Shown: piece by piece, positions 7,648 through 20,851 of the stretch
Position numbering within the stretch: the stretch's first letter is position 1
Layout: each line of letters begins with the position of its first letter
NCBI GenBank assembly: GCA_003152315.1
Contig: PLZV01000033.1
Coordinates: 1-39,686 of the forward strand
DNA length: 39,686 nt
Direction: 5' to 3'
DNA from: Verrucomicrobiota bacterium
GTDB lineage: Bacteria; Verrucomicrobiota; Verrucomicrobiia; Palsa-1439
Notes under the pieces: generated by a model
What the model was told of the DNA's origin: nothing
Database searches by the model: none
What the model saw: the letters and a program-made list of their open reading frames with translations, nothing else
Translations under genes and position numbers: made by a program

Positions 7648-8268
7648 TTAATTATCCTTAAGCTTGTCGCGGAAATGCTCCCGGAACTTCGCCACCTTGG
7701 GCGCGATCACCATCTGGCAATAAGGCTGTTTGCCGTGCAACTTGAAGTACTCCTGGTGATAATCCTCGGCCTTGTAGAACGTCTTGAACGGCGAGAGTTG
7801 CGTCACGATCTGGCCGTCCCAAATCTTCGCCGCGGCGATTTCCTTGATCACCTGTTTGGTCACGGCCTTCTGTTCATCGTTGCGATAAAAAATCGCCGAC
7901 CGATACTGGGTCCCGACATCGTTTCCTTGTCGATCCAACGTCGTGGGATCATGCACGGTAAAGAACACTTCCAAAATCACCTTGAGCGAAACGACCCTGG
8001 GGTCGAACGTAATTTGACTTACTTCGGCATGCCCCGTATCGCCTGTGCAGACCTGTTCGTAGGTGGGATTCGGCACGGTGCCTCCCGAGTAGCCCGATTC
8101 AACCTTCTCCACGCCCTTCAACTGCTCGAAGACCGCTTCCGTGCACCAGAAACATCCCCCGCCGACAGTGATGACTTCGTTTGCTTGTGAGTTGGTAACG
8201 GTTTGGCTCATGGCGTTCGTCCCCAGTACGATTCCTGCGATTAATGCGATGGCTTTCAGCATGCACAT
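7648..8268 (-). CDS. msrA: Secreted peptide-methionine (S)-S-oxide reductase
   Basis: This is a 206-aa MsrA that reduces methionine-S-sulfoxide in damaged proteins. The active-site motif [13 protein letters not shown] (Cys39 nucleophile) is intact. The [13 protein letters not shown] block and the [10 protein letters not shown] motif are present, and a resolving cysteine sits in the C-terminal [10 protein letters not shown] segment. Residues 1-21 ([20 protein letters not shown]) look like a signal peptide, so repair would occur in the periplasm rather than the cytosol. Starts at 8268 and 8262 are both ATG. It lies 58 nt after the desaturase stop, on the same strand as the bufferin-like genes. 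This fits a copper or oxidative stress role by context (inference). Confidence 0.94.
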
Positions 8269-8326: not shown

Positions 8327-9379
8327 TCAGAGCCGGGCGGCTTGTCGCCGTTGGCGGCGAATGGCCCGGAGGTCGCTGTAGCCGATAAGCCGGTGACGCT
8401 GTTCGTCCCAAAGGCGGAAGGTGAATGACTTGAAGCTTGAGAAGAGGGTCACCGGTGGCACGGTCTGAAACAGTGGCTCGGCGTTGTGGCACTTCTCGAG
8501 GTTGTAGTTGGGAATCCGTGGGCTGAGATGATGGATATGATGGAATCCGATGTTGCCTGAGAACCATTGAAGCAACTTCGGAAGCTTGTAAAAAGAACTA
8601 CCCTTCAGCGCCGCCTCGGTGTAATCCCACTCCTCGCGGCGTTCCCAGTAAACTCCTTCAAATTGATGCTGCACATAGAACAACCACACGCCAGCCGTAC
8701 CGGCCATTGATACCACGCTCACTTGAATCAGCAGGTAAGCCTTCCAGCCGAAGACGGAGATCATGCCGCCGACCAGGCCCACGAGGGCGAGGTTCGTCCA
8801 ATACACGGAATGTCGCTCCCGCTTGCTGGCGCCCGGGGATGGAAGGCGATGCTTGATGAGAAACAAGGCGGCTGGGGCAATGACAAATAACACGATGGGG
8901 TTGCGCGCCAGTCGGTAAGCGAACCGTTTCCAGCGCGACGACTCCAGGTATTCCTGCACCGTCAGCGTCCACACATCGCCTTTGCCGCGCCGGTCCAGAT
9001 CACCGGAGCTGGCATGATGCACCGCATGCTCCCACCGCCAGAGGTAATAGGGTGTGAGCGTCACTACGCCCGTGACAAATCCCCAAAAATCATTGGCTTT
9101 GCGCGATTTGAAAAATGAACCATGACCGCAATCGTGAAAAATGATGAAAACGCGCACCAGAAACCCGGCCTCCAGGATTACCAGCGGCACGATGAGCCAA
9201 TAGGACACGGACAAACTGAGATACATCAAATACCAAATTACCGCGTAGGGGACGAGGGAGTTCGTGATCTGCCAAACGCTGCGCCAAACCGATGGCTCCT
9301 GATATTTCGCCACCACTTCTTTCCAAGGCATGGCATTCGCCTGCCGCTCGGCATCCGTATATACTAGTTCTTCAATCAT
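8327..9379 (-). CDS. Membrane fatty acid desaturase
   Basis: This is a 350-aa di-iron membrane desaturase. The three histidine boxes of the acyl-lipid (omega-6/delta-12-like) family are intact: HDCGH at residues 82-86, HAVHH at 118-122, and HHIHH near residue 285. Hydrophobic pairs precede box 1 (about 41-80) and follow box 2 (about 155-215), giving the usual four-helix topology. The open frame runs upstream to 11107, but only because a frameshift in the preceding gene removes its stop. The true start is the ATG at 9379, which has an AAGGA ribosome-binding site 7 nt upstream and leaves a 133-nt gap to the upstream gene. The product would introduce double bonds into membrane lipids. It lies between a thioredoxin-domain gene and msrA. 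Confidence 0.9.
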   Translation of the reverse strand: MIEELVYTDAERQANAMPWKEVVAKYQEPSVWRSVWQITNSLVPYAVIWYLMYLSLSVSYWLIVPLVILEAGFLVRVFIIFHDCGHGSFFKSRKANDFWGFVTGVVTLTPYYLWRWEHAVHHASSGDLDRRGKGDVWTLTVQEYLESSRWKRFAYRLARNPIVLFVIAPAALFLIKHRLPSPGASKRERHSVYWTNLALVGLVGGMISVFGWKAYLLIQVSVVSMAGTAGVWLFYVQHQFEGVYWERREEWDYTEAALKGSSFYKLPKLLQWFSGNIGFHHIHHLSPRIPNYNLEKCHNAEPLFQTVPPVTLFSSFKSFTFRLWDEQRHRLIGYSDLRAIRRQRRQAARL

Positions 9380-9512
9380 GGCGTTCCTTTTGCGGAATTC
9401 CCCCAAATGAATGGAAGCTGAACCACCTCCTTGAGGTTCCGCTGTAGCCTCAATATACCCCCCAATCGTTTCTCCGGCAACATCGAAAACCAAAAAACGC
9501 CACCGATCCATT

Positions 9513-10990
9513 TCACCACGAATAGGCACCGGCGTCGTCAAGTGCCAGCAGGTATTCGCCGACCATGCGGCCCTGATCGTCGAGCGTACGAGGTGTGGCG
9601 ATGGCGGCGAGGATATGCCGGGCGCGTTCGCGCCAAATGGCTTCGTCCTTATTGAGGTTCGCGAAGAATCGCGCACACACCACGTTATGGACAAATGGTT
9701 GTTGGCGGCGTTCTCGTCCGGGGTGTGCTCGAAATACCCACCCGACTTGGCATCTACAAAATTCTTTACGGTTGCCAGTGCAATGCGTTTGGCCGCGAGA
9801 CCATAACGCGAATCGCCACTCACCAACCCCAGCCGTACAAGCCCCCAGCCGAACGCCGCGGCATCGGCGAGATAGAACGGGCCGGTTTTTCGGTCGGCAT
9901 CGTGTGTTGCCTCATACAGGGTGCTGAGTGCGGCGATAGCGAGGCCGTTTTCACGGGCGTAGACGTGCGTGTCAATGCGCGGAAAGCCGAGTTTACGGCG
10001 GCTGGCGTCGTCGAGCGCGTAGTACGTATGGCCATCCACGAATGCCTTGTCTTTCTCGTGCGCGTTGAGGTCGGCGTCTTGCGTGGCGAAGAAGGTGCCG
10101 TTGGTCGAGGTGAAAAACTTTTCAAGATAGCTGTCAATCTTCCGCGCATCGGCGAGGAACGTCCCGTTGCTTGTCGCCTGCCAGGCGCGTGCGGCGGCCT
10201 CCAGGTTGGCGGCCTGATACGTCATCAGTTTCTCGAAATGCGGTTCGTTCCATTTGCTCGCGGCGGAATACTGGTAGATGCCGCCCCAGACCGGATCGAT
10301 CAGCGCACGCTGTTTTCCGAGACTGAAAACGGCCCGTTGGAAGGCGTTGCTGTTGCCGTGCGCGGCGCGGCGAAGTTCAAATTCGATATTCGCGCCCATG
10401 GGCGCTTTTTGCTGGCGTCCCCAGCCGCCCTCATTGGGGTCATACCAGTCGTCCATGTCACGCGTGACCCGGACACCGATCCACCCCAGCGCGTCAACGG
10501 GCGCGGACGGGTCGGCATCGATATGTCGCGCGTTCTTCGGGTTGGCATGCTCAATATCCGCCAGCGCGTTTTTCAGCTCGTCCGGTGAGAGGTACCCGCG
10601 GAATTTTCCAAGTTCCTCGGCGTCGGGCGAGAAAATCACGGTGGCGGGCCAACCCCACGCGCCGTAGCGTTCGGCCAGGTCGGGTCGCGCGTCGATATCG
10701 ACACGGATCGCCACGAAGCGGTTGCTGAGAGTGCGCCCGATGTCGGGATCCAGGTAGGTCGTCGCGTCCATGACATGGCACCAGTGGCACCACTCGGCGG
10801 CGCAATCAAGGAGGATGAAACGGTGTTCGCGTTTGGCGAGGGCGAAGGACTCGTCCGACCACGCGGCCCATTGGAAAAGCTGCTGGCGTCCGCGCTCGCG
10901 GGCCTTGGCGATATTGACGCTGTCGGGAACGTCCGCCGCGAAGACATTCACGGTGGTAACGAGGACACCGATAGCGACGAGGCGGCGCAT
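9513..10990 (-). CDS. DUF255 thioredoxin-domain protein, frameshifted near the C terminus
   Basis: This is an exported protein of about 492 aa (if repaired) of the DUF255/YyaL (SSP411-like) type. It has a signal peptide (about residues 1-19), a thioredoxin-like domain with the AEWCHWCHVMD motif (Cys68 and Cys71), and a downstream (alpha/alpha)6-barrel-like helical region. The span is 1478 nt, one short of a multiple of three. Around 9685-9686 the frame shifts, and after that point the other frame continues as sensible protein (VVCARFFANLNKDE... EYLLALDDAGAYSW) to a TGA at 9513-9515. One missing A in an AAA run on the coding strand explains it. Unrepaired, translation runs in frame into the desaturase. 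Whether this is a real mutation or a sequence error is unknown. The start at 10990 lies 8 nt from the upstream gene, and an ATG at 11032 is an alternative. Confidence 0.82.
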
Positions 10991-10998
10991 GAAGGATT

Positions 10999-11937
10999 TC
11001 ACGGATGGCAAAACCAACCGAAGGAGGTCCATTCCTTGAACCAATGCTGCACCTGTGCCGGCCAGTCTTTCGCGGCGGACCCACGACGCTTCAACAGAAC
11101 GGCACACGCCTTCTCGATTGTCGCACCCCGCTGCAAGGCCCGCAGGATTTCAAACTGTTCACGGATGAGCGGTTTGTAATAGACCGAGCACTCCATCCGA
11201 TGGACCGCGATATAGAGCCGCTGCGGTTTCAGCCCGCGAAAGCTGATGCGCCGGGCGCGCTTGTGCTGCAAGGCAACGGCGTTGCTGGCTTCGCCACGCA
11301 GCCGGTCATCGCCCTGCTTGGCCGCAATAAGCAGGTCGTCCACGGGATAGCGCACTTCCAGCAGGGTGATGTACGGCTGCAACGCGAGGCGCACTTTGGA
11401 AGGATGGCGACCGAGCAAATCGTCCACATGGATGGTCGGCTTCGTTGCCTCGTCGAAGGCGACGATATTGGCCCATTCGATCCGCACCATATCGAGCGCC
11501 AGTCGCTGGTGCGGCACGGTCCATTTCGGCTCGGCGCGCAAAAAACCCTCGACGCGACGACCGAGATTGCGGAGTGAGAACGATTCCGACGGATAGCGAG
11601 CGAGATAGGCGCGGGCCAGTCGGTCGAATTTCCGGTCGCCGAGGACAGCCCGCAAACCTGGATAATCATCGTAAAAGCAGTCGAGGATGCGGAACCAGTA
11701 CTGGCGGTTGTAGATTTCCAGGCGTTCGAACGAGGTGAGACGGTCGTTGGGCTTGATGATGGCCTCGGCAACGGGAGCGGAAGACTTTTGCATCCGGTTG
11801 CGCGGGGCCAGCGGCCGCATGATCGCGCCCGCCATCAGCGCCTGCAGTTCGCCGAGTTGCCGGGCCGACGCAACTTTAGGCGGACGCGGTTTTGTGCGCG
11901 AACTGGCGGATGAACTGGTTGGCTTTGAGCGCCTCAT
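10999..11937 (-). CDS. bufC: DUF2063 (HvfC/BufC-like) partner of the MNIO enzyme
   Basis: This is a protein of about 312 aa with the DUF2063 N-terminal domain (RQLGELQALMAGAI, then RLTSFERLEIYNRQYWFRILDCFYDDYP) and a C-terminal domain typical of BufC/HvfC proteins. In characterised systems this protein pairs with a DUF692 multinuclear iron oxidase and binds the precursor peptide leader. The ATG at 11937 has a GAGG ribosome-binding site but overlaps the 3' end of the DUF692 gene by 62 nt. The ATG at 11835 avoids the overlap but would cut into the predicted first helix. The neighbouring order precursor-DUF692-DUF2063 supports the assignment. The symbol is given by family and context, not by close sequence identity. 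Confidence 0.85.
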   Translation of the reverse strand: MRRSKPTSSSASSRTKPRPPKVASARQLGELQALMAGAIMRPLAPRNRMQKSSAPVAEAIIKPNDRLTSFERLEIYNRQYWFRILDCFYDDYPGLRAVLGDRKFDRLARAYLARYPSESFSLRNLGRRVEGFLRAEPKWTVPHQRLALDMVRIEWANIVAFDEATKPTIHVDDLLGRHPSKVRLALQPYITLLEVRYPVDDLLIAAKQGDDRLRGEASNAVALQHKRARRISFRGLKPQRLYIAVHRMECSVYYKPLIREQFEILRALQRGATIEKACAVLLKRRGSAAKDWPAQVQHWFKEWTSFGWFCHP

Positions 11938-12730
11938 GGTGAACCTCGTCGAACGACGGAATGCGATCGTCCCACTCCAGCAGCGTGGCGGTGATGCCGG
12001 CCAGTTTGACGGCGCGGGCATAAAGTTCCCAGACGGGGTCCAGCACCGGATGATCGTGGGTATCGAGAATGTATTTTTTGAATTTGGAATGGCCCGCGAT
12101 GTGGATTTGCGCGACGCGGTCGTGGGGAACGTTGTTGACGTAATCGTAGGGATTGAAATTGTGGTTCTTCGAGGAGACGTAGATGTTATTCACGTCGAGC
12201 AGAATGCCGCAGTCGGCCTGTTCGACGACTTCGGTGAGGAACTCCCACTCGGTCATCTCCGAGACATGAAACTCGGTATAGCTGCTGACATTCTCGACGG
12301 CAATGGGTATTTCCAGGAAATCGCGCACCTCGCGGACCTTTTGCGCGGTGACTTTCGCCGCCGCGAACGTGTAGGGCATGGGCAGCAGGTCGTGGGTGTA
12401 GCGGCCATCGACGCTGCCCCAGCAGAGATGGTCGGATAACCACGGCGTCTTGGTTCGCTTCACCAGATTCTTGAGGCGCCTGAGATGCTCGCGGTTCAAC
12501 TTGTCGGCGGAACCGAAATACATCGAGACGCCGTGCTGCACGACGCGGTATTGTTCGAGGATCTGGTCGAGGACTTCCAGGGGACGACCGCCATCGACCA
12601 TGAAGTTTTCGGAGATGATCTCAAACCAATCGACGACGGGCTTGCGCGTGAGGATGTGCTGGTAATGCGGCACCCGCAAGCCGATGCCGATACCGTAATC
12701 GGTGAATCCGTTGAAGCGGTTGGCTGGCAT
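11876..12730 (-). CDS. bufB: DUF692 multinuclear non-heme iron oxidase (MNIO), BufB-like
   Basis: This is a 284-aa TIM-barrel enzyme of the DUF692/MNIO family (MbnB, HvfB and BufB relatives), which oxidatively modify cysteines in ribosomal peptides. Candidate metal ligands are visible in order: PWLSDHLCWG (Asp100/His101), ENVSSY (Glu146), LLDVNNIYVSSKNH (Asp179, Asn181/182, His190), HIAGH (His210/214) and LLEWDDRIP (Glu252). The N terminus GIGIGLRVPHYQHIL matches the family's first strand. The ATG at 12730 was chosen. The frame extends upstream to a TTG at 12781, but that extension is the translated intergenic hairpin. The gene lies directly after the Cys-rich precursor and overlaps the DUF2063 gene, so the likely substrate is the product at 12795-13091. 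Confidence 0.92.
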   Translation of the reverse strand: MPANRFNGFTDYGIGIGLRVPHYQHILTRKPVVDWFEIISENFMVDGGRPLEVLDQILEQYRVVQHGVSMYFGSADKLNREHLRRLKNLVKRTKTPWLSDHLCWGSVDGRYTHDLLPMPYTFAAAKVTAQKVREVRDFLEIPIAVENVSSYTEFHVSEMTEWEFLTEVVEQADCGILLDVNNIYVSSKNHNFNPYDYVNNVPHDRVAQIHIAGHSKFKKYILDTHDHPVLDPVWELYARAVKLAGITATLLEWDDRIPSFDEVHHEALKANQFIRQFAHKTASA

Positions 12731-12794: not shown

Positions 12795-13091
12795 CTAGGG
12801 CGCGGGAGCGGGCTTCGGCTCGTTCGTGTTGCAGCCGCCCTTACCTTTGCAGGAGTTCTTGCCTTTGCAGCCGTTGTCGCTACCGCTGCAGCCGCCAGTA
12901 CCCTTACAGGAATTCTTCCCCTTGCAGTCGTGCTTGCCCTTGTCGCCGGTATCGTCCATCTGGCCCCAGCTCGACAGGCTCGTGCCGTTGGGGGTGGTGG
13001 TGGACTGGCTGGCATACGTACGCGCGACCGCGCCCGTCATCAAACCGGCCATGGCTGCGCCTGCGACCAATGCTTTCGCTGATCTGTTCAT
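12795..13091 (-). CDS. bufA: Bufferin-like RiPP precursor with six core cysteines
   Basis: This is a 98-aa precursor peptide. Residues 1-28 are a Sec-type signal (NRSAKALVAGAAMAGLMTGAVA core). A Ser/Thr-rich linker follows to about residue 54. The core has six cysteines (56, 62, 68, 75, 81, 87) in two near-identical units of the form CKGKNSCKGxGGC, and ends in a Pro/Ala tail. This architecture matches precursors of MNIO-modified peptides of the bufferin class, which carry a cleavable signal peptide, are exported, and bind copper through thiooxazole-type groups. That chemistry is known from the family and not shown here. A strong GGAGGAG ribosome-binding site precedes the ATG. It is the first gene of the operon and lies next to DUF692 and DUF2063 genes. 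Confidence 0.85.
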   Translation of the reverse strand: MNRSAKALVAGAAMAGLMTGAVARTYASQSTTTPNGTSLSSWGQMDDTGDKGKHDCKGKNSCKGTGGCSGSDNGCKGKNSCKGKGGCNTNEPKPAPAP

Positions 13092-13544
13092 TACTACTCC
13101 TCCGTTGGGTGTTTGGTTGTTTGTGGCCTTCCGTTCCTATCACGCCAGGCAGGAACGAAAATGGATTCAGACTTGATGGAATTTCCGGCTGGAAAATGTG
13201 TGTCTGGGAAGAATCCTGGCATCGTGGGTGTACGATGCGCACCGCGTTGGTTGGATTCGTACGTTTTCACCAAGCTCCGCCGTAATTAAGATACGGTGCG
13301 ACAATGCATTTGGATTTAGACCCGTTAACCAGAGCCGCCATCGGCCCCCGAACGACCTTCACGCCAGCGGCAAAATAATCTACCGAACCGCTGAAAGCAA
13401 ATCGAATCGGAACGGGGGGTGGGGTTCAATACGGGAGTGGCAGCGCCGCTGTTCAGCGTTTCGGGAGGCGACTCAAGGGATACTACCCGGAAATATGCGA
13501 TTGTGCGGGACTGACCCATTTCCCGCGCCCTGAGGGCACTTAGG
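13092..13544. other. Intergenic region upstream of the bufA-like gene
   Basis: About 450 nt without a credible gene. Short frames here are arginine-rich shadows. It must hold the promoter of the bufferin-like operon (read leftwards). No convincing -35/-10 pair could be fixed by eye. A GGAAC box near 13130-13140 on the minus strand could be an ECF-type -35, but this is weak. Confidence 0.4.
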
Positions 13545-15065
13545 TCAGGGCAGAAGCTTTTTGGACCACTCTTGAATTGTGTGCCAATAGGGCAGCGCAC
13601 TTAAAACGGTTGCCGCCGTTGCAATTATTGCCAACCAGAGCATACGGCGCTGGAGAAGGAACGTAATCTCCATGTTTTTGCCAGTTAGATAATCGGCAAA
13701 ATAGGAGTTAATGATACCAACATGCTTCCTTAATCGTTCAGCACGTGTCCGGATCGAGAAGAGTATCGTGTTGCTCAACGGTTCAGGATTCTTGCCAAGT
13801 ACGGCAAACATCTTTTCGAGCCCAGCATCTTTCGCTAGAAGGATCTTTATCCACGAAGCGCCTTGTTCGAAGTCGTTAAGCACTCTATCCAATAGCATTG
13901 ATTCGCGTCTCAGTTGATGGCTCAGTTGGAGCGAGATAGGTACGTGGCGATGTGGAGCACCCCAGACCCCCCTTTTTACGAAGACATCTTTTCTCAGGCG
14001 AGCAACCCTGTCTTCCATCAGATTAAGCAATTCCCAGACTGCAATCCCTGCGGCCAAGCCCCTGAGAACGAATCTTGGACGATAATCCACGTTGTCTTCC
14101 TTGGATAGTGGATCGGCGACGATCACAAGACGGTGGGGCGCTTGTCGCAAAGAATCCTTGTCCGCCCAGACAAATAGTGCTCTCTCGCTCTCATATGTAT
14201 CGAACGAGAACCTAAATCCCAGCCACTCCCACCATCTGCGCCCTCGTTCACGCCACTCCTGGAATTCTTTCTTTACGGTCGGTGCGCCGCGAAGGACAAA
14301 TATCTCGATTGCGGGTAGCGTAGCCGTGTCCGTAGCGTCCTCACCTAGAAAATAACCCTTCAGATACGGACTGACGCATCCCTCAATTCTTCGACGCAAA
14401 TCGTCTTGCCAAAGCTCCATTTGATCGGACGCACCGGAAAATGGAGAAGCAACCGAATGCAGGAACCCCTTCCCGAAGGGTAGAAGGCCCCGAAACTTAA
14501 CGACGGGGAGATAGTATTTGTTCTGCAATTCCGCGACTTGTTGTCGCGCTATCTCAGTCAGATGAACATCGAATGTCAGAATCACCGATGACGAAAGGAA
14601 CTTGTGAATCGCAAGGCTAATATAGCTTACTTCAACTGGCAGTTCCGCCATGTTGCAGCAAAGGCCGACGGAAAACCATGCGTCTTTACCACCCCGACGG
14701 ATCGTTCCTACCTCGGCCCGCCCGCCCGGCCCAATCTCATCCGTAAAAGCCGTGATTGTTTCAGAAACATTGCTAATACCGAATTTGTTCTCGAATTCTG
14801 GAAAGAGCTGATTGAGCCCGGTTCTGAGCTGGTCGAAATCCTCTAAGTGGAACAGCTCGATTAACCGTAAAGTGCGCACTTCAAGGGTTGCTCCATCCGG
14901 AGGACGGCTGCCGTTAAATGCCTCCTCGGCCTCGCGTCTTTGAAATTGACGCAATTCCTGAAGCTGGGCGATCCGACCACCACCGAATTGTGGAAGCTTT
15001 TCGACAAAGTCGAGATACTTTGTCCCGAGCTTTATTCTCCAGCTTTCTGGGATTTGTATAGACAC
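13545..15065 (-). CDS. Large unknown protein with a C-terminal membrane anchor
   Basis: This is a 506-aa protein not recognised as any family. The sequence is mostly soluble and mixed alpha/beta, with several Trp-rich stretches (RGRRWWEWLGF at about 275-285) and many charged helices. Near the C terminus are a basic helix and one clear transmembrane segment (RRMLWLAIIATAATVLSALPYW, about 471-492) followed by a short tail, so it may be a tail-anchored or signalling protein. Codon use is less GC-rich than in the housekeeping genes. The frame opens with a GTG at 15065 without a visible Shine-Dalgarno, so the start is uncertain. It lies downstream of the zinc-ribbon protein and the methyltransferase-nuclease gene, so it could belong to an accessory or defence module. 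That is context only. Confidence 0.55.
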   Translation of the reverse strand: MSIQIPESWRIKLGTKYLDFVEKLPQFGGGRIAQLQELRQFQRREAEEAFNGSRPPDGATLEVRTLRLIELFHLEDFDQLRTGLNQLFPEFENKFGISNVSETITAFTDEIGPGGRAEVGTIRRGGKDAWFSVGLCCNMAELPVEVSYISLAIHKFLSSSVILTFDVHLTEIARQQVAELQNKYYLPVVKFRGLLPFGKGFLHSVASPFSGASDQMELWQDDLRRRIEGCVSPYLKGYFLGEDATDTATLPAIEIFVLRGAPTVKKEFQEWRERGRRWWEWLGFRFSFDTYESERALFVWADKDSLRQAPHRLVIVADPLSKEDNVDYRPRFVLRGLAAGIAVWELLNLMEDRVARLRKDVFVKRGVWGAPHRHVPISLQLSHQLRRESMLLDRVLNDFEQGASWIKILLAKDAGLEKMFAVLGKNPEPLSNTILFSIRTRAERLRKHVGIINSYFADYLTGKNMEITFLLQRRMLWLAIIATAATVLSALPYWHTIQEWSKKLLP

Positions 15066-15148
15066 AGGGAATTACGCCAAAATAGGGTCAGTTCGATTGT
15101 TGTTAGTATAGTTGCGCCATCGTGAAAAGCGAACCGTCTCCTTCATGG

Positions 15149-15409
15149 TCATCTCACCAGCCACTGAATCAACACTATCACCACGATCACAATAAAGGCC
15201 AACGCCCACAAAGAGGGGTTGGCGAAGGCTCGGGCTGGAATGTCGCAGCCGCATCCAGGACAGGAGACGTACGTGTATGATTTGTCACATTTGCGGCACT
15301 CCAGAAAGAACGACCCCAGGATTTTCTTGGCCGACAAAGAACTATTGCCGCAGTTGCGACAGAGGGGAAGAGGGTTCGTCTTCCCGCATTTTGGACAGCG
15401 ACCATTCAT
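15149..15409 (-). CDS. Small zinc-ribbon membrane protein
   Basis: This is an 86-aa protein with four CxxC-type knuckles: CPKC and CRNC near the N terminus, CRKC, then CPGC followed by GC. They form two probable zinc ribbons in residues 1-55. A C-terminal hydrophobic helix (about 62-84, ALAFIVIVVIVLIQWLV) should anchor it in the membrane. Proteins of this plan are often of unknown function and sometimes sense stress or regulate membrane partners. The ATG at 15409 was chosen because the zinc-ribbon pattern begins immediately after it. The longer frame overlaps the end of the methyltransferase gene. It follows that gene by 7 nt and probably shares its transcript. Confidence 0.65.
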   Translation of the reverse strand: MNGRCPKCGKTNPLPLCRNCGNSSLSAKKILGSFFLECRKCDKSYTYVSCPGCGCDIPARAFANPSLWALAFIVIVVIVLIQWLVR

Positions 15410-15416
15410 CTTCGGT

Positions 15417-16919
15417 TCACGCCAGTTTCTTGGCGATCTGCTCGTCCAGAATCTCTCGCACGGCAAGCGGGATGATGGCTTTGCCGCTTTTCTTGAAGAA
15501 GCGGTCGATCTCGGTGAGGGCGTCGCTGGAGTAGTCGAAGGCGATGAAAAAACCTTTGGTGCGGTCTTCGCGGGTCATCACGGCTTCGAACTGGTCAACG
15601 TCGGGGCGACCGACTTTGTCCTTCTGCTTCACCTGAATCGGATACCACACGTCCATGAACTCCAAGTGGCCGGTTTCCTTGCCGACGCGCGCGGGTGCGG
15701 CGCTAACGGGATAAATGCGACCGTCGATGCCCATGTCACCGACCTTCGTTACGTTCGGGATGCCACCGAGCGCGATGACGGCCCAGTTCTCAAATTCAAA
15801 CGGCGGAATCTCGCGCAGCTTCACTTCCGTCCACGGCAGATCGCGCACGATGAAGCCGCGACCGATAGCCCACAGCTTTTCGTCTTCGGGGAGGCCACAA
15901 ATGTTTTTGTCGCGGAGTCGTTTCGCCATTACGCGGCAGGCTGTTGGCGAAACATCAATGCCGATCCATTGACGTTTCAAATTCTGTGCGGCGACAAGCG
16001 CCGTGCCACAACCGCAAAAAGCGTCGAGCACAATCTCGTTCTCCTTACTGCTGGCTTTTATAATGCGTTCCAAAAGCGCGAGCGGTTTTTGAGTGGGATA
16101 ACCAAGTCGCTCCGCAGCTTGTGAATTCAAAGGCTCGATGTCGTCCCAAACATTTCCGACAAGTGTTCCTGGCATTTCGTCCAAATAGCGCTTGATACGT
16201 ATCCTTCCATCCTTGTCCTTTGGAAAATAAAGCCGCCCTTCAGCGTCAAGCTTCTCCATAAGCTCACGCGAAACTGACCAGCCATTTGGATGTGGCTTAT
16301 ATCCCTTGTAATCGTAGGTCAAATTCGGGCGGGGTGATGGGCTGCGCAAGTCGCGCGTGGTGAATTGTCGGCCATTAGAATCAACATTGCTATAGTGTGA
16401 CTTAATGTAGCTTTCCGAATACTCGACGTGCTGCGGGTTGAATTCGTAGTCATCCGAGCTACCCGTATAAAACATAATTGCGTCCGTTTGGTCGCCAAAC
16501 CTACGTTTTGCATCGCTGTGGCTGCTGGTCCGCTTCCACACGATCTCATTTTGAAAATTATTCTCCCCGAAAATCTGGTCGAGCATGACTTTGACGTAGT
16601 GGGAGGCGTGCCAGTCGCAGTGGTAGTAGAAGCTGCCGGTCTTTTTGAGGACGCGGGCGAGTTCGACACAACGCGGGCGCATGAACTCGATGTAGGCTTG
16701 TGTCGATGCGTGGCGGTCATCAAATGAGCGCGTTTCCTTGGTCTCACCCCAAAAGACTTCATAGTTGCGATTGGAATTGAACGGCGGGTCGATGTAGATC
16801 AAATCCACGCAGGCGTCGGGTAGTTTCTTCAGTTGCTCCAAGTTGTCGCCGCAGTAGATGACGCGCGTGTCCACGAGCGAGGAGGGTTTGGCTGTCGGAG
16901 CGGTAGCTTTCTTCGCCAT
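15417..16919 (-). CDS. Adenine DNA methyltransferase fused to an Mrr-type nuclease domain
   Basis: This is a protein of about 500 aa. The N-terminal two thirds are a beta-class N6-adenine methyltransferase: motif IV IDPPF at residues 43-47, YPTQKP at 274-279, and motif I DAFCGCG at 299-305. The C-terminal third resembles the Mrr_cat PD-(D/E)xK nuclease fold, with GDMGIDG (394-400), IQVKQK (428-433) and a KGFFIAFDYS strand. It may therefore be a single-chain restriction-modification enzyme (type IIG-like) or a methyltransferase with a regulatory nuclease-like domain. No separate specificity subunit lies nearby. The ATG at 16919 (MAKKATAP) looks like the normal family start. The same frame stays open to 17213 and adds 98 residues containing one membrane segment, which may or may not be translated. 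Confidence 0.85.
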   Translation of the reverse strand: MAKKATAPTAKPSSLVDTRVIYCGDNLEQLKKLPDACVDLIYIDPPFNSNRNYEVFWGETKETRSFDDRHASTQAYIEFMRPRCVELARVLKKTGSFYYHCDWHASHYVKVMLDQIFGENNFQNEIVWKRTSSHSDAKRRFGDQTDAIMFYTGSSDDYEFNPQHVEYSESYIKSHYSNVDSNGRQFTTRDLRSPSPRPNLTYDYKGYKPHPNGWSVSRELMEKLDAEGRLYFPKDKDGRIRIKRYLDEMPGTLVGNVWDDIEPLNSQAAERLGYPTQKPLALLERIIKASSKENEIVLDAFCGCGTALVAAQNLKRQWIGIDVSPTACRVMAKRLRDKNICGLPEDEKLWAIGRGFIVRDLPWTEVKLREIPPFEFENWAVIALGGIPNVTKVGDMGIDGRIYPVSAAPARVGKETGHLEFMDVWYPIQVKQKDKVGRPDVDQFEAVMTREDRTKGFFIAFDYSSDALTEIDRFFKKSGKAIIPLAVREILDEQIAKKLA

Positions 16920-17213
16920 GCCCCGCAGTCTAGGAAATGCCGTACGAATGGTCAATGCTGCGACAGAGGCTTTACGATGTGCTCGTTTCAAAGCCTTGCG
17001 TATGGACGACCAATGTTCCTGCAACAGCTTTCCGCTACCATAGACGAGCAGGAAGACGCGTACCGCAGTGATGATCAGGACTAGAGGCAGGGGGAAATGT
17101 TCATATGCTTTCCAAATACCTGAGAAGATAAAGTGTGCGCCTTGCAAGGCTGCTAGCCACGCGACGAACTCGTCTCGTGTCAGCTTTATACGTTTTTGCC
17201 TAGTTACCCGCAT

Positions 17214-18146: not shown

Positions 18147-18605
18147 CTACTTTTTCTTTTCTCCGCAGACCCGGGCGATCACGGCGTCCAGTGAGAACGC
18201 GCCGGGGCCGAAGATCAGGACGATGACACAGGTCAGTAGAAATAAAAATGGCACGGCGGTCACGAACGCGTCGGGGTTGGAGAAGACGCCTTTGATTTTG
18301 TCGGGGTCGGCGGTGAAGTACGCCACGAACATGGTGAAGATGAGCGGGACGGTCACGATCCGCGAACCCAATCCGAGCAACAGCAGCAGTCCGCCGAAAC
18401 ATTCCGTACTGCCGGCCATGATGGCATTCAACTTGGGCGCGGGAATGTTTAAACTGGCGAAGTATCCCGCGGTGCGGTCGAGGTTGAGCAGCTTGCCTTT
18501 GCCCGTCAGGAAAAACTGCCAACCCCAATACAGGCGAATGATCAGCAGGAATGGGGATTGCAATCGCGAAACCAGACTGACGTGCAACGCGTACAGTTTC
18601 TTCAT
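18147..18605 (-). CDS. DoxX family membrane protein
   Basis: This is a 152-aa DoxX-type protein with four hydrophobic helices (about residues 18-36, 62-84, 88-105 and 115-140). Family hallmarks are LIIRLYWGWQFFLTGKGKL near the start and ECFGGLLLLLGLGSRI in the middle. DoxX proteins are small quinone- or thiol-linked membrane proteins. In many bufferin operons a DoxX protein (BufD) is encoded beside the precursor and MNIO genes. Here it lies 5 kb away but on the same strand, 100 nt after a CusS-like sensor gene, so it may be the metal-induced output of that system (inference). A GGAGGTGA ribosome-binding site precedes the ATG. The 3' end abuts the composite repeat. Confidence 0.88.
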   Translation of the reverse strand: MKKLYALHVSLVSRLQSPFLLIIRLYWGWQFFLTGKGKLLNLDRTAGYFASLNIPAPKLNAIMAGSTECFGGLLLLLGLGSRIVTVPLIFTMFVAYFTADPDKIKGVFSNPDAFVTAVPFLFLLTCVIVLIFGPGAFSLDAVIARVCGEKKK

Positions 18606-18705: not shown

Positions 18706-20157
18706 TCAAGGCGCATTGCTGGGGAAACGGAGTGTGATGGTGGTGCCCGCACCCGGCGCACTCGTGATCCCGACCGTTCCGCCATGGAGGGCCAAGATGG
18801 ATTTCACAATTGCCAGCCCGAGCCCGAAGCCTTGCGGGTGCTGCGACCGGGAGCGATCGGCGCGATAAAAACGGTCGAAGATGCGCGGCAGATGTTCGGG
18901 GCCGATTCCCGCTCCGGTATCGGTGACACTGATGTCCATCCAGCCGTCGCTCGAAGGCGCAGCCGAGATCATGACCTTGCCGCCACGCGGGGTGTACTGC
19001 AGCGCATTGGAAAGCAAGTTGCCGAGGGCCTGTCGGAAGAGCAGCGGATCAGCGTTCAACTGCCCCTCCCCCGTACCGGCCACCTCGACCCCTTGTTCCT
19101 CGGCCACGACGTCGTAAAACTCCCGGACCGCCTCGATCTCCCTCTGAACATCCAACGTCGAGCGTTTCAATTCGGTCTCGGCATTCTCCGCCCGGGCCAG
19201 AAAGAGCAGGCTGTCGATGAGATGTGAGAGGCGTCCGCATTCCTCGAGACTGGAGGCCAGCACTTGCTGGTATTCTTCCGTTGTTCGCGGCTTGGAGAGC
19301 GAGACTTCCGCCTCGCCCATGAGATTGTTGATGGGCGTTCTCAGTTCGTGGGCGAGATCTGACGAAAACTGCGAAAGCCTGGCGAATGAATCCTCGAGGC
19401 GATCGAGCATTCCATCGAAGGCCCCCGCCAGGGCAGTCAACTCTTGCGGCCAATGCGTCGAACCGATTCGCTCATGGAGCTGCGTCGGGCGGATGCGCTG
19501 CGCCGCCGAGGTGATTTCCGACAACGGTCGCATCCCCATCCCAGCCACCACGACCCCCGCCGCGGCGGACAAGCCCAGTCCCAACAGGATTACTCCCGCC
19601 AGCCGCCACCCGAAGCTCTGGACCAACCTCTCTTCCTTGGAAACATCCAGCGCGACTTCGATCACCCCCTGCGTGTCGCCCGTGTATCCGACTTGTCCCC
19701 ACGCCGAGGTCAATAGATACCATCGTCCGTCACGCCCGCGGGTCTTGGTAAATTGTCTCGGTGATTTCGTCGCTTTGACAGGGGGTGGGAATTGAGAACT
19801 CTCCACCACCTCTCTCATGTGCGACGTGGCCTCGATTTCCCGCCGCTGCTGATCGATGACTCGCGCGTAATAATTCGGGTACATACCTTCCATGCTGATT
19901 TCGGCATCCATGGCCCGGGGATTGTTGGGAAGCTCGCGCAAGGCCGCGCGGATATCGTGCACTTCGTCCTGCAGAAACTGACCGGCGAGGTGATCGACAT
20001 TCCGCGCCAGCATCCAGTAGACCAGGACGCAGCACACCGTCAGGATCCCCGCTGCCGAAAGCATGTAGAGCAACGTCAGCCGAAACGTGATCGACGACCA
20101 CCACCGCCGAGGCCCGCGCGAACCGCCTGGCGGCCGCTCATCGGTCTTCAAGGACAT
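18706..20157 (-). CDS. CusS-like heavy-metal sensor histidine kinase
   Basis: This is a 483-aa sensor kinase. Two transmembrane helices (about 25-46 and 178-203) flank a periplasmic sensor region of about 130 residues. A HAMP domain follows ([13 protein letters not shown]), then the HisKA H-box with phospho-acceptor His in [17 protein letters not shown]. The HATPase_c domain carries the N box ([15 protein letters not shown]), G1 (DTGAGIG) and G2 ([12 protein letters not shown]). The architecture fits the heavy-metal sensor kinase family (CusS/IrlS/CopS type), although the ligand is not proven. The ATG at 20157 overlaps the regulator gene by 20 nt and has a GGAG site within the regulator's last codons. 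DoxX follows. Confidence 0.9.
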
Positions 20158-20809
20158 AGCCGACTCCGCGGACGGTGTGGACCAATTTCTTCGCAAATGG
20201 TTCGTCAATCTTCCGCCGCAGACGCCGCACGGCAACGTCCACCACGTTCGTATTACTATCGAAATTCATGTCCCACACCTGCTCGGCAATGATCGTCCGC
20301 GAGAGAATCTCGCCCGCGCGCCTCGCTAACAACGAGAGGAGATCGAATTCCTTGGCGGTGAGATCGACTCGTTTTCCCCCACGCGTCACCTTGCGACGGG
20401 GAAAGTCGATTTCCAAGTCAGTGAGTTTCAGTGTTTCCACCGGGCGGGACGAACCGCGCCGCAAGACAGAATGCATCCGGGCGAGCAACTCGGAGAACGC
20501 GAAAGGTTTCACCAAATAATCGTCGGCACCCAATTCGAGGCCTTTGACCCGGTCATGAACCTGGTCGCGCGCCGTCAGAAAGAGCACCGGCGTCTGTTTC
20601 CCCGCGCGCCGCAACTCGGTAATCACCGACCAGCCATCCCGCCGCGGGAGCATCACGTCGAGAATCACGAGGTCGTAGTTGCCCGTCTGCGCGAGATGCA
20701 ATCCCTCCTCGCCGTCGACGGCGCAGTCCACGATGTAGCCGCCCTCGGAAAGCCCCTTCCGCAAATAAGCCGCTGTCTTTGGTTCATCCTCAACAATCAA
20801 AATCCGCAT
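20138..20809 (-). CDS. CusR-like OmpR-family response regulator
   Basis: This is a 223-aa response regulator. The receiver domain has the acidic pair in VEDEP (near residue 9), the phospho-acceptor in [14 protein letters not shown] (Asp near 51), a conserved Thr in LFLTARD and Lys in [13 protein letters not shown]. The C-terminal winged helix ([15 protein letters not shown]... [13 protein letters not shown]... [12 protein letters not shown]) is of OmpR/PhoB type. It most resembles heavy-metal regulators such as CusR. The frame also opens at 20815, but GAGG at -8 fits the ATG at 20809 better. An ATACCG-6 nt-CGGTAT inverted repeat at 20852-20869 lies upstream and could be an operator. It pairs with the following kinase gene. 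Confidence 0.92.
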
Positions 20810-20851
20810 GGCCATCGCCTCATTTTTGAATGTCTTCCCACCTCGGCTACG

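What the first reader, a model, noticed from the sequence alone, without database searches (positions are those of the whole stretch)
12795..13091. Precursor core with two near-identical three-cysteine units
The core repeats CKGKNSCKGxGGC twice with spacings of 6, 6, 7, 6 and 6 residues between Cys56 and Cys87. The doubling suggests two metal-binding modules in one peptide and an internal duplication visible in the DNA. The MNIO family is known to convert such cysteines into thiooxazoles, but how many of the six are modified is unknown.
Basis: partly seen in the sequence, partly recalled or inferred. Interest (0 to 1): 0.7.

Follow-up and report, generated by a model that had tools for sequence, protein, structure and literature searches.

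The report
Copper-binding peptide precursor, bufferin type
This small gene encodes an exported cysteine-rich peptide that a neighbouring iron enzyme very probably turns into a copper-binding metallophore; it is an ordinary member of a recently described family, and its relatives show that the real building block is a six-residue Cys-Lys-Gly repeat rather than a duplicated three-cysteine unit.

Summary
The minus-strand ORF 12795-13091 (98 aa) has cysteines at 56, 62, 68, 75, 81 and 87, in two 13-mers that match at 12 of 13 positions. It is the bufA of a complete bufABC operon: BufB scores above the NCBIfam bufferin-maturase cut-off, and BufC has a DUF2063 domain and a TglI/RRE-like predicted fold. 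A DoxX gene and a copper-type two-component system lie upstream. It belongs with the published Cys-Lys captophorins (bufferin 2, "Buf_6/12Cys"), though it scores below the BufA2 model's cut-off, as do the other sampled members of its phylum. Eighty of 81 precursors, including this one, share the six-Cys 6-6-7-6-6 pattern, so the doubling is ancient and not peculiar to this locus. At DNA level there is no sign of recent duplication (7 of 12 synonymous codons identical, 5.4 expected). BufB-anchored sampling shows 3 to 11 cysteines spaced mostly by 6, pure hexad arrays, and two-Cys and single-triad forms. I expect four CKG cysteines to become 5-thiooxazoles, with Cys68 and Cys87 kept as thiols or a disulfide; that count is inference. 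One side result is worth follow-up: a BufB clade with Gly instead of Asp beside the catalytic Asp goes with Cys-Pro precursors.

The parts
12795..13091 (-). bufA-like precursor gene, 98 aa, six cysteines
   Evidence: ORF and Cys positions; NF050166 Cu_RiPP_BufA2 E 4.1e-6 but 26.9 bits, under the cut-off of 60; 79 loci with relatives
13011..13091 (-). predicted Sec signal peptide, residues 1-27 (MNRSAKALVAGAAMAGLMTGAVARTYA), inferred cleavage after Ala27
   Evidence: sequence features only, no predictor run; hydrophobic stretch conserved in homologues
12888..12926 (-). first unit CKGKNSCKGTGGC, residues 56-68
12831..12869 (-). second unit CKGKNSCKGKGGC, residues 75-87
   Evidence: the NF050166 match lies at 12831-12950
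13097..13103 (-). ribosome-binding site GGAGGAG before the bufA ATG
   Evidence: read from sequence; a GGAG-type site also in the same-genus relative
13092..13480 (-). conserved upstream region, likely promoter and 5' leader
   Evidence: alignment with L110 of the same genus, 86% mean column identity over 478 columns
11876..12730 (-). bufB, MNIO (PF05114) maturase; start inferred (the mechanical ORF runs to 12781)
   Evidence: NF050167 MNIO_BufB 343.9 bits, over the cut-off of 310; PF05114 354.4 bits; only MNIO in the genome; motif LLEWDDRIP
10999..11937 (-). bufC, DUF2063 partner protein with RRE-like C-terminal part; start inferred, overlapping the end of bufB
   Evidence: PF09836 55.6 bits, over 27.2; HvfC model 30 bits, under its cut-off of 142; AlphaFold2 model pLDDT 85.7 with TglI of TglHI as best PDB match
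18147..18605 (-). DoxX gene, a core gene of bufferin clusters
   Evidence: PF07681 76.9 bits, over 23.6; HvfX model 71.3 bits, under its cut-off of 80; DoxX found in 61 of 79 related loci, mostly next to bufC
18706..20235 (-). heavy-metal sensor histidine kinase, CopS/CusS type
   Evidence: TIGR01386 403.7 bits, over 292.55
20138..20815 (-). heavy-metal response regulator, CopR/CusR type
   Evidence: TIGR01387 343.4 bits, over 279.2

Best explanation
The gene is the precursor of a periplasmic Cys-Lys captophorin (bufferin-2-like metallophore) made under copper stress. The peptide is translated with a Sec signal peptide that also serves as leader. The BufB-BufC complex binds it in the cytoplasm, and BufB oxidises cysteines in Cys-Lys-Gly hexads to 5-thiooxazoles. 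Sec then exports it, and the thiooxazole sulfurs sequester Cu(I) in the periplasm. I expect four modified cysteines (56, 62, 75, 81, each followed by Lys-Gly), with Cys68 and Cys87 (followed by Ser and Asn) left as thiols or a disulfide. Shown here: precursor, enzyme, partner, signal-like N-terminus, copper-type two-component system, conserved cysteines. Inferred: the chemistry, the number of sites, export and copper binding. The confidence given is for the metallophore reading; for exactly four sites it is about 0.45.
For: BufB passes the bufferin-maturase cut-off. The gene order bufA-bufB-bufC is kept: bufB follows in 72 of 79 related loci, bufC in 64 and DoxX in 61, within the flanks held. 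The six cysteines are kept in 80 of 81 precursors. BufC has DUF2063 and its model matches TglI, the MNIO partner in TglHI (8hci, 8hi7), with weak matches of its C-terminal part to a stand-alone RRE, TbiB1. CopRS-type regulators and DoxX lie upstream on the same strand and keep that order in a same-genus genome. In one search the residue beside the catalytic Asp is Asp (EWDDR) where the Lys-Cys type MNIO 3bww has Phe (ERDFN); PMC13097082 reports this Phe-to-Asp change for Cys-Lys MNIOs, with BufB2-Asp251 modelled against the substrate Lys. [quoted passage not shown] PMC13097082 shows 5-thiooxazoles and copper binding for related products.
Against: The precursor scores under the curated BufA2 cut-off (26.9 against 60), as do all 10 matching genomes sampled in its phylum. 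DoxX and the two-component system are separated from bufA by about 5 kb of unrelated genes, so co-regulation is not shown. Lys after Cys is not a strict rule: G333-type precursors have CAG at the fourth Cys, and in most homologues Cys68 is also followed by Lys (72 of 80), so the four-site prediction could be wrong. No experimental datum exists for this locus. The precursor fold prediction is uninformative (pLDDT 51).
Confidence: 0.82

Rival explanations
1. All six cysteines become thiooxazoles (six sites, about 24 Da lost), with no thiol left over.
For: All six cysteines are almost invariant. In relatives with pure hexad arrays nearly every Cys is in the same CKxK context (L093, L095, L168; L171). 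Published relatives modify all repeats, for example seven in fontiphorin (PMC13097082) and six in MmrA (PMC12538549).
Against: Cys68 and Cys87 end GGC motifs and here are followed by Ser and Asn; position 88 is Lys in only 5 of 80. In Buf1 only the two central cysteines are modified and the outer two form a disulfide (PMC12452194).
Confidence: 0.35
2. The peptide works as an unmodified metallothionein-like thiol peptide and the MNIO acts on something else.
For: Cys-rich, Lys-rich, predicted disordered. PMC12452194 notes some bufferin precursor genes without an MNIO.
Against: It is the only precursor found in the genome next to the only MNIO, with the strict bufABC order kept in most relatives.
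Confidence: 0.07
3. The product protects against another metal or against oxidative stress rather than copper.
For: TIGR01386/01387 cover several heavy metals. MerC-bufferin fusions and gold-induced operons are known (PMC12452194). A methionine sulfoxide reductase lies downstream.
Against: The characterised products of this enzyme class read here bind copper (PMC13097082, PMC12538549).
Confidence: 0.15
4. The repeat is a recent local duplication of one three-Cys unit in this lineage.
For: 12 of 13 residues identical between units.
Against: The same two units are in 80 of 81 precursors across phyla. Synonymous codons agree about as often as expected, and the same-genus relative shows 30 of 39 bases.
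Confidence: 0.03

Closest known systems
Bufferin 2 / BufA2 (Buf_6/12Cys; NCBIfam NF050166)
   Same: Sec-type signal, six conserved cysteines, bufABC order, BufB equivalog, DUF2063 partner, DoxX nearby
   Different: Under the BufA2 model cut-off (26.9 against 60 bits); the Verrucomicrobiota/Acidobacteriota subfamily has a stereotyped CKGxNxCKGxGGC core; a CopRS-type system lies upstream
Captophorins, Cys-Lys group (PMC13097082)
   Same: Multiple Cys-Lys motifs beside an MNIO and DUF2063 pair; Asp in place of FonB Phe250
   Different: No product from this subfamily has been characterised in the papers read here
Oxazolin, fontiphorin, gonophorin (EGKCG, Lys-Cys group)
   Same: Same enzyme pair type and signal peptide logic
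   Different: Lys precedes Cys and the repeat is five residues; here Lys follows Cys and the repeat is six
Bufferin 1 (DUF2282)
   Same: Same maturase family and function class
   Different: Four cysteines, no DUF2282 domain here
Methanobactin
   Same: MNIO-made copper peptide
   Different: MbnB model 41 bits against a cut-off of 325; no Sec signal, copper acquisition rather than protection

Membership tests
Buf2 / BufA2 bufferin | Score over the NF050166 curated cut-off | tested here: not met
   26.9 bits against 60; the whole sampled phylum is under it, so I call it Buf2-like and do not call it a BufA2 equivalog
Buf2 / BufA2 bufferin | Six conserved cysteines | tested here: met
Buf2 / BufA2 bufferin | Strict order precursor, MNIO, DUF2063 protein | tested here: met
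Buf2 / BufA2 bufferin | BufB-type maturase over its cut-off | tested here: met
   343.9 bits against 310
Buf2 / BufA2 bufferin | Sec signal peptide | tested here: inconclusive
   Basic start, hydrophobic stretch and a plausible TYA site seen by eye and conserved; no signal-peptide predictor was available
Captophorin, Cys-Lys group | Multiple Cys-Lys motifs encoded next to MNIO and PME1 | tested here: met
   Four CKG motifs, PF05114 and PF09836
Captophorin, Cys-Lys group | Asp at the FonB Phe250 position | tested here: met
   EWDDR against ERDFN of 3bww; same motif in 64 of 66 related BufB with a match
Captophorin, Cys-Lys group | Partner protein is DUF2063 fused to an RRE | tested here: met
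   PF09836; model best matched by TglI, C-terminal part weakly by RRE TbiB1
Captophorin, Cys-Lys group | 5-thiooxazoles on the peptide and Cu binding | not testable with these tools
   needs expression, mass spectrometry and metal titration
Bufferin 1 | DUF2282 domain | tested here: not met
   no Pfam match at E up to 1
Methanobactin | MbnB over its cut-off | tested here: not met
   41.2 bits against 325

The most novel reading that the evidence does not exclude
Two things not excluded. First, the unit of evolution is a Cys-Lys-Gly hexad whose copy number (2 to about 11 cysteines) sets copper capacity, and the window's peptide is one fixed arrangement that keeps two unmodified GGC cysteines, so that copper is held by a mixed thiooxazole-thiolate site. 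Second, the residue beside the BufB catalytic Asp reads the residue after Cys: Asp for Lys, Gly for Pro. The second was seen in a related family in which three genomes carry both types of BufB.
Probability: 0.3. Interest if true: 0.55.

Novelty: new member of a known kind. Interest (0 to 1): 0.33.

Why it matters
It extends the copper-protective bufferin/captophorin class into a Verrucomicrobiota and Acidobacteriota subfamily that the current BufA2 model under-detects, so such precursors may be missed by annotation. The relatives give ready-made natural variants (2, 4, 6, 9 and 11 cysteines; CKG against CPG; single triad) to test how many cysteines are modified and what the enzyme reads around the cysteine.

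Tried and rejected
A recent tandem duplication at DNA level was tested by codon identity and rejected. Structure prediction of the precursor gave pLDDT 51 and no usable fold. PDB sequence search found nothing for the precursor or BufC. The hairpin before bufA is no more stable than shuffles of its surroundings (z -0.08), so I do not claim an RNA element. An automatic precursor picker failed for several loci; some were read by hand, and for L136-L138 no precursor was found. The first-pass conservation table is biased, since the seed patterns included CKG peptides; therefore a BufB-anchored sample was added. L001 and L006 in the table are picker artefacts (a contig without bufB, an overlong ORF).

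Full report
What is there. The ORF 12795-13091 lies on the minus strand and encodes 98 residues with six cysteines at 56, 62, 68, 75, 81 and 87. Two 13-residue stretches match at 12 of 13 positions, far beyond shuffles of the same composition (best 9 in 20,000). It has a ribosome-binding site (GGAGGAG) and a typical signal-peptide start.

The operon. Directly downstream are an MNIO enzyme and a DUF2063 protein. The enzyme passes the NCBIfam bufferin-maturase model (343.9 against 310 bits) and Pfam PF05114, and it is the only one in the genome. The DUF2063 partner has a confident predicted fold (pLDDT 85.7). Its best solved match is TglI, the partner in the TglHI holoenzyme; its C-terminal part weakly matches the stand-alone RRE TbiB1. 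Upstream on the same strand are DoxX and a heavy-metal response regulator and sensor kinase of CopRS/CusRS type, both regulators over their curated cut-offs. A second species of the same genus keeps regulator, kinase, DoxX, bufA, bufB, bufC, DUF255 and msrA in the same order. It has different cargo between DoxX and bufA, and the region upstream of bufA is conserved.

Family. The precursor hits the BufA2 model at E 4e-6 but under the cut-off, as do all matching genomes sampled in its phylum. A collection scan gave 79 loci. Eighty of 81 precursors, the window's included, carry six cysteines at 6-6-7-6-6; the exception (L002) has Phe in place of the last Cys and an extra hexad before the core. 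That scan was seeded with pieces of the query, so conservation inside the seeds is overstated. Published work describes Buf2 precursors with six cysteines in 90% and twelve in the rest, in clusters of precursor, MNIO, DUF2063 and DoxX (PMC12452194), and a Cys-Lys group of captophorins (PMC13097082). Six-cysteine precursors before a DUF692 gene were already noted in Antarctic soil metagenomes (PMC8692599).

What the doubling means. To avoid the seed bias I searched for BufB in whole genomes and read the gene before it. Among 38 distinct Cys-Lys precursors, 20 have six cysteines, 15 have 7 to 11 and 3 have 3 or 4. Of 230 Cys-to-Cys intervals, 186 are 6 and 30 are 7. Some are pure arrays of CKGKDG or CKAKES hexads with no GGC triad (L093, L095, L168; L171). 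One family has only two close cysteines (CKGKQSCKG, or GSCxQCS). Three loci have a twin-arginine-type protein with a single CxGGNSCxxLGxC triad. So the hexad, not the triad, is the likely unit, and single-unit forms do exist. At DNA level the window's two units show no excess of identical codons, so the arrangement is old.

Which cysteines are modified. PMC13097082 reports that MNIOs of the Cys-Lys group carry Asp where FonB has Phe250, beside the catalytic Asp249, and models it against the substrate Lys. The window's BufB has Asp there (EWDDR against ERDFN in 3bww), as do most relatives. With Lys-Gly after Cys56, 62, 75 and 81 but Ser after 68 and Asn after 87, I expect four thiooxazoles and two thiols or a disulfide, by analogy with Buf1, where two of four cysteines are modified (PMC12452194). 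This is inference; homologues often have Lys after the third Cys (72 of 80).

A side result. One clade of BufB has Gly at that position (single origin, support 100/99), and the six precursors found with it all have Cys-Pro repeats; a seventh, truncated, agrees (L142). Three genomes (G333, G355, G368) carry both a Gly-type BufB, with a Cys-Pro precursor, and an Asp-type BufB, with a CKG precursor. The rule is not strict: Ala occurs with CKG precursors, and one Asp clade has lost Cys-Lys. It rests on one evolutionary event.

Verdict. The finding is real and its general interpretation is right, but it is a member of a described class. The doubled unit is a family trait, and the DNA-duplication claim is not supported.

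Noticed in passing
window 8327-11107: One 926-aa ORF joins a DUF255 thioredoxin-like N-terminal part to a fatty acid desaturase. A DUF255-like continuation appears in another frame at 9513-9683, and in L110 the desaturase is broken into several frames, so a frameshift or decaying genes are likely.
   Followed up: partly
window 13545-17213: A DNA methylase with an Mrr-type domain, a small Cys-rich ORF and a 506-aa ORF without any family match sit between DoxX and bufA. The same-genus relative has a different 666-aa ORF there, so this looks like an insertion hot spot.
   Followed up: partly
window 13129-13160: An 11-bp stem (TTCGTTCCT...AGGAACGGAA) precedes bufA and is kept in the same genus only; it could be an operator.
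   Followed up: partly
L102, L104, L105, L139, L143, L144: Precursors built of 23-27-residue repeats with one Cys-Pro-Gly or Cys-Pro-Asp each, next to BufB with Gly beside the catalytic Asp.
   Followed up: partly
L113 4667-5392; L140; L141: Twin-arginine-type proteins of about 200-240 aa with a single CxGGNSCxxLGxC triad before a divergent BufB. The one scanned, L113, has no Pfam match and only a weak TAT-signal hit in NCBIfam.
   Followed up: partly
L097, L100, L101, L103, L145-L150: One family with small genomes (about 1.9-2.5 Mb) has minimal precursors with only two close cysteines and Lys-rich tails; BufB is present in 11 of 13 genomes searched.
   Followed up: partly
L136, L137, L138: BufB with Ala beside the catalytic Asp, no precursor found before it; a sigma-factor-like gene lies just upstream, although sigma genes are reported for Buf1 and not Buf2 clusters.
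   Followed up: no
window 7648-8268: A methionine sulfoxide reductase A with a signal-like N-terminus lies downstream of the buf operon in both species of the genus.
   Followed up: no
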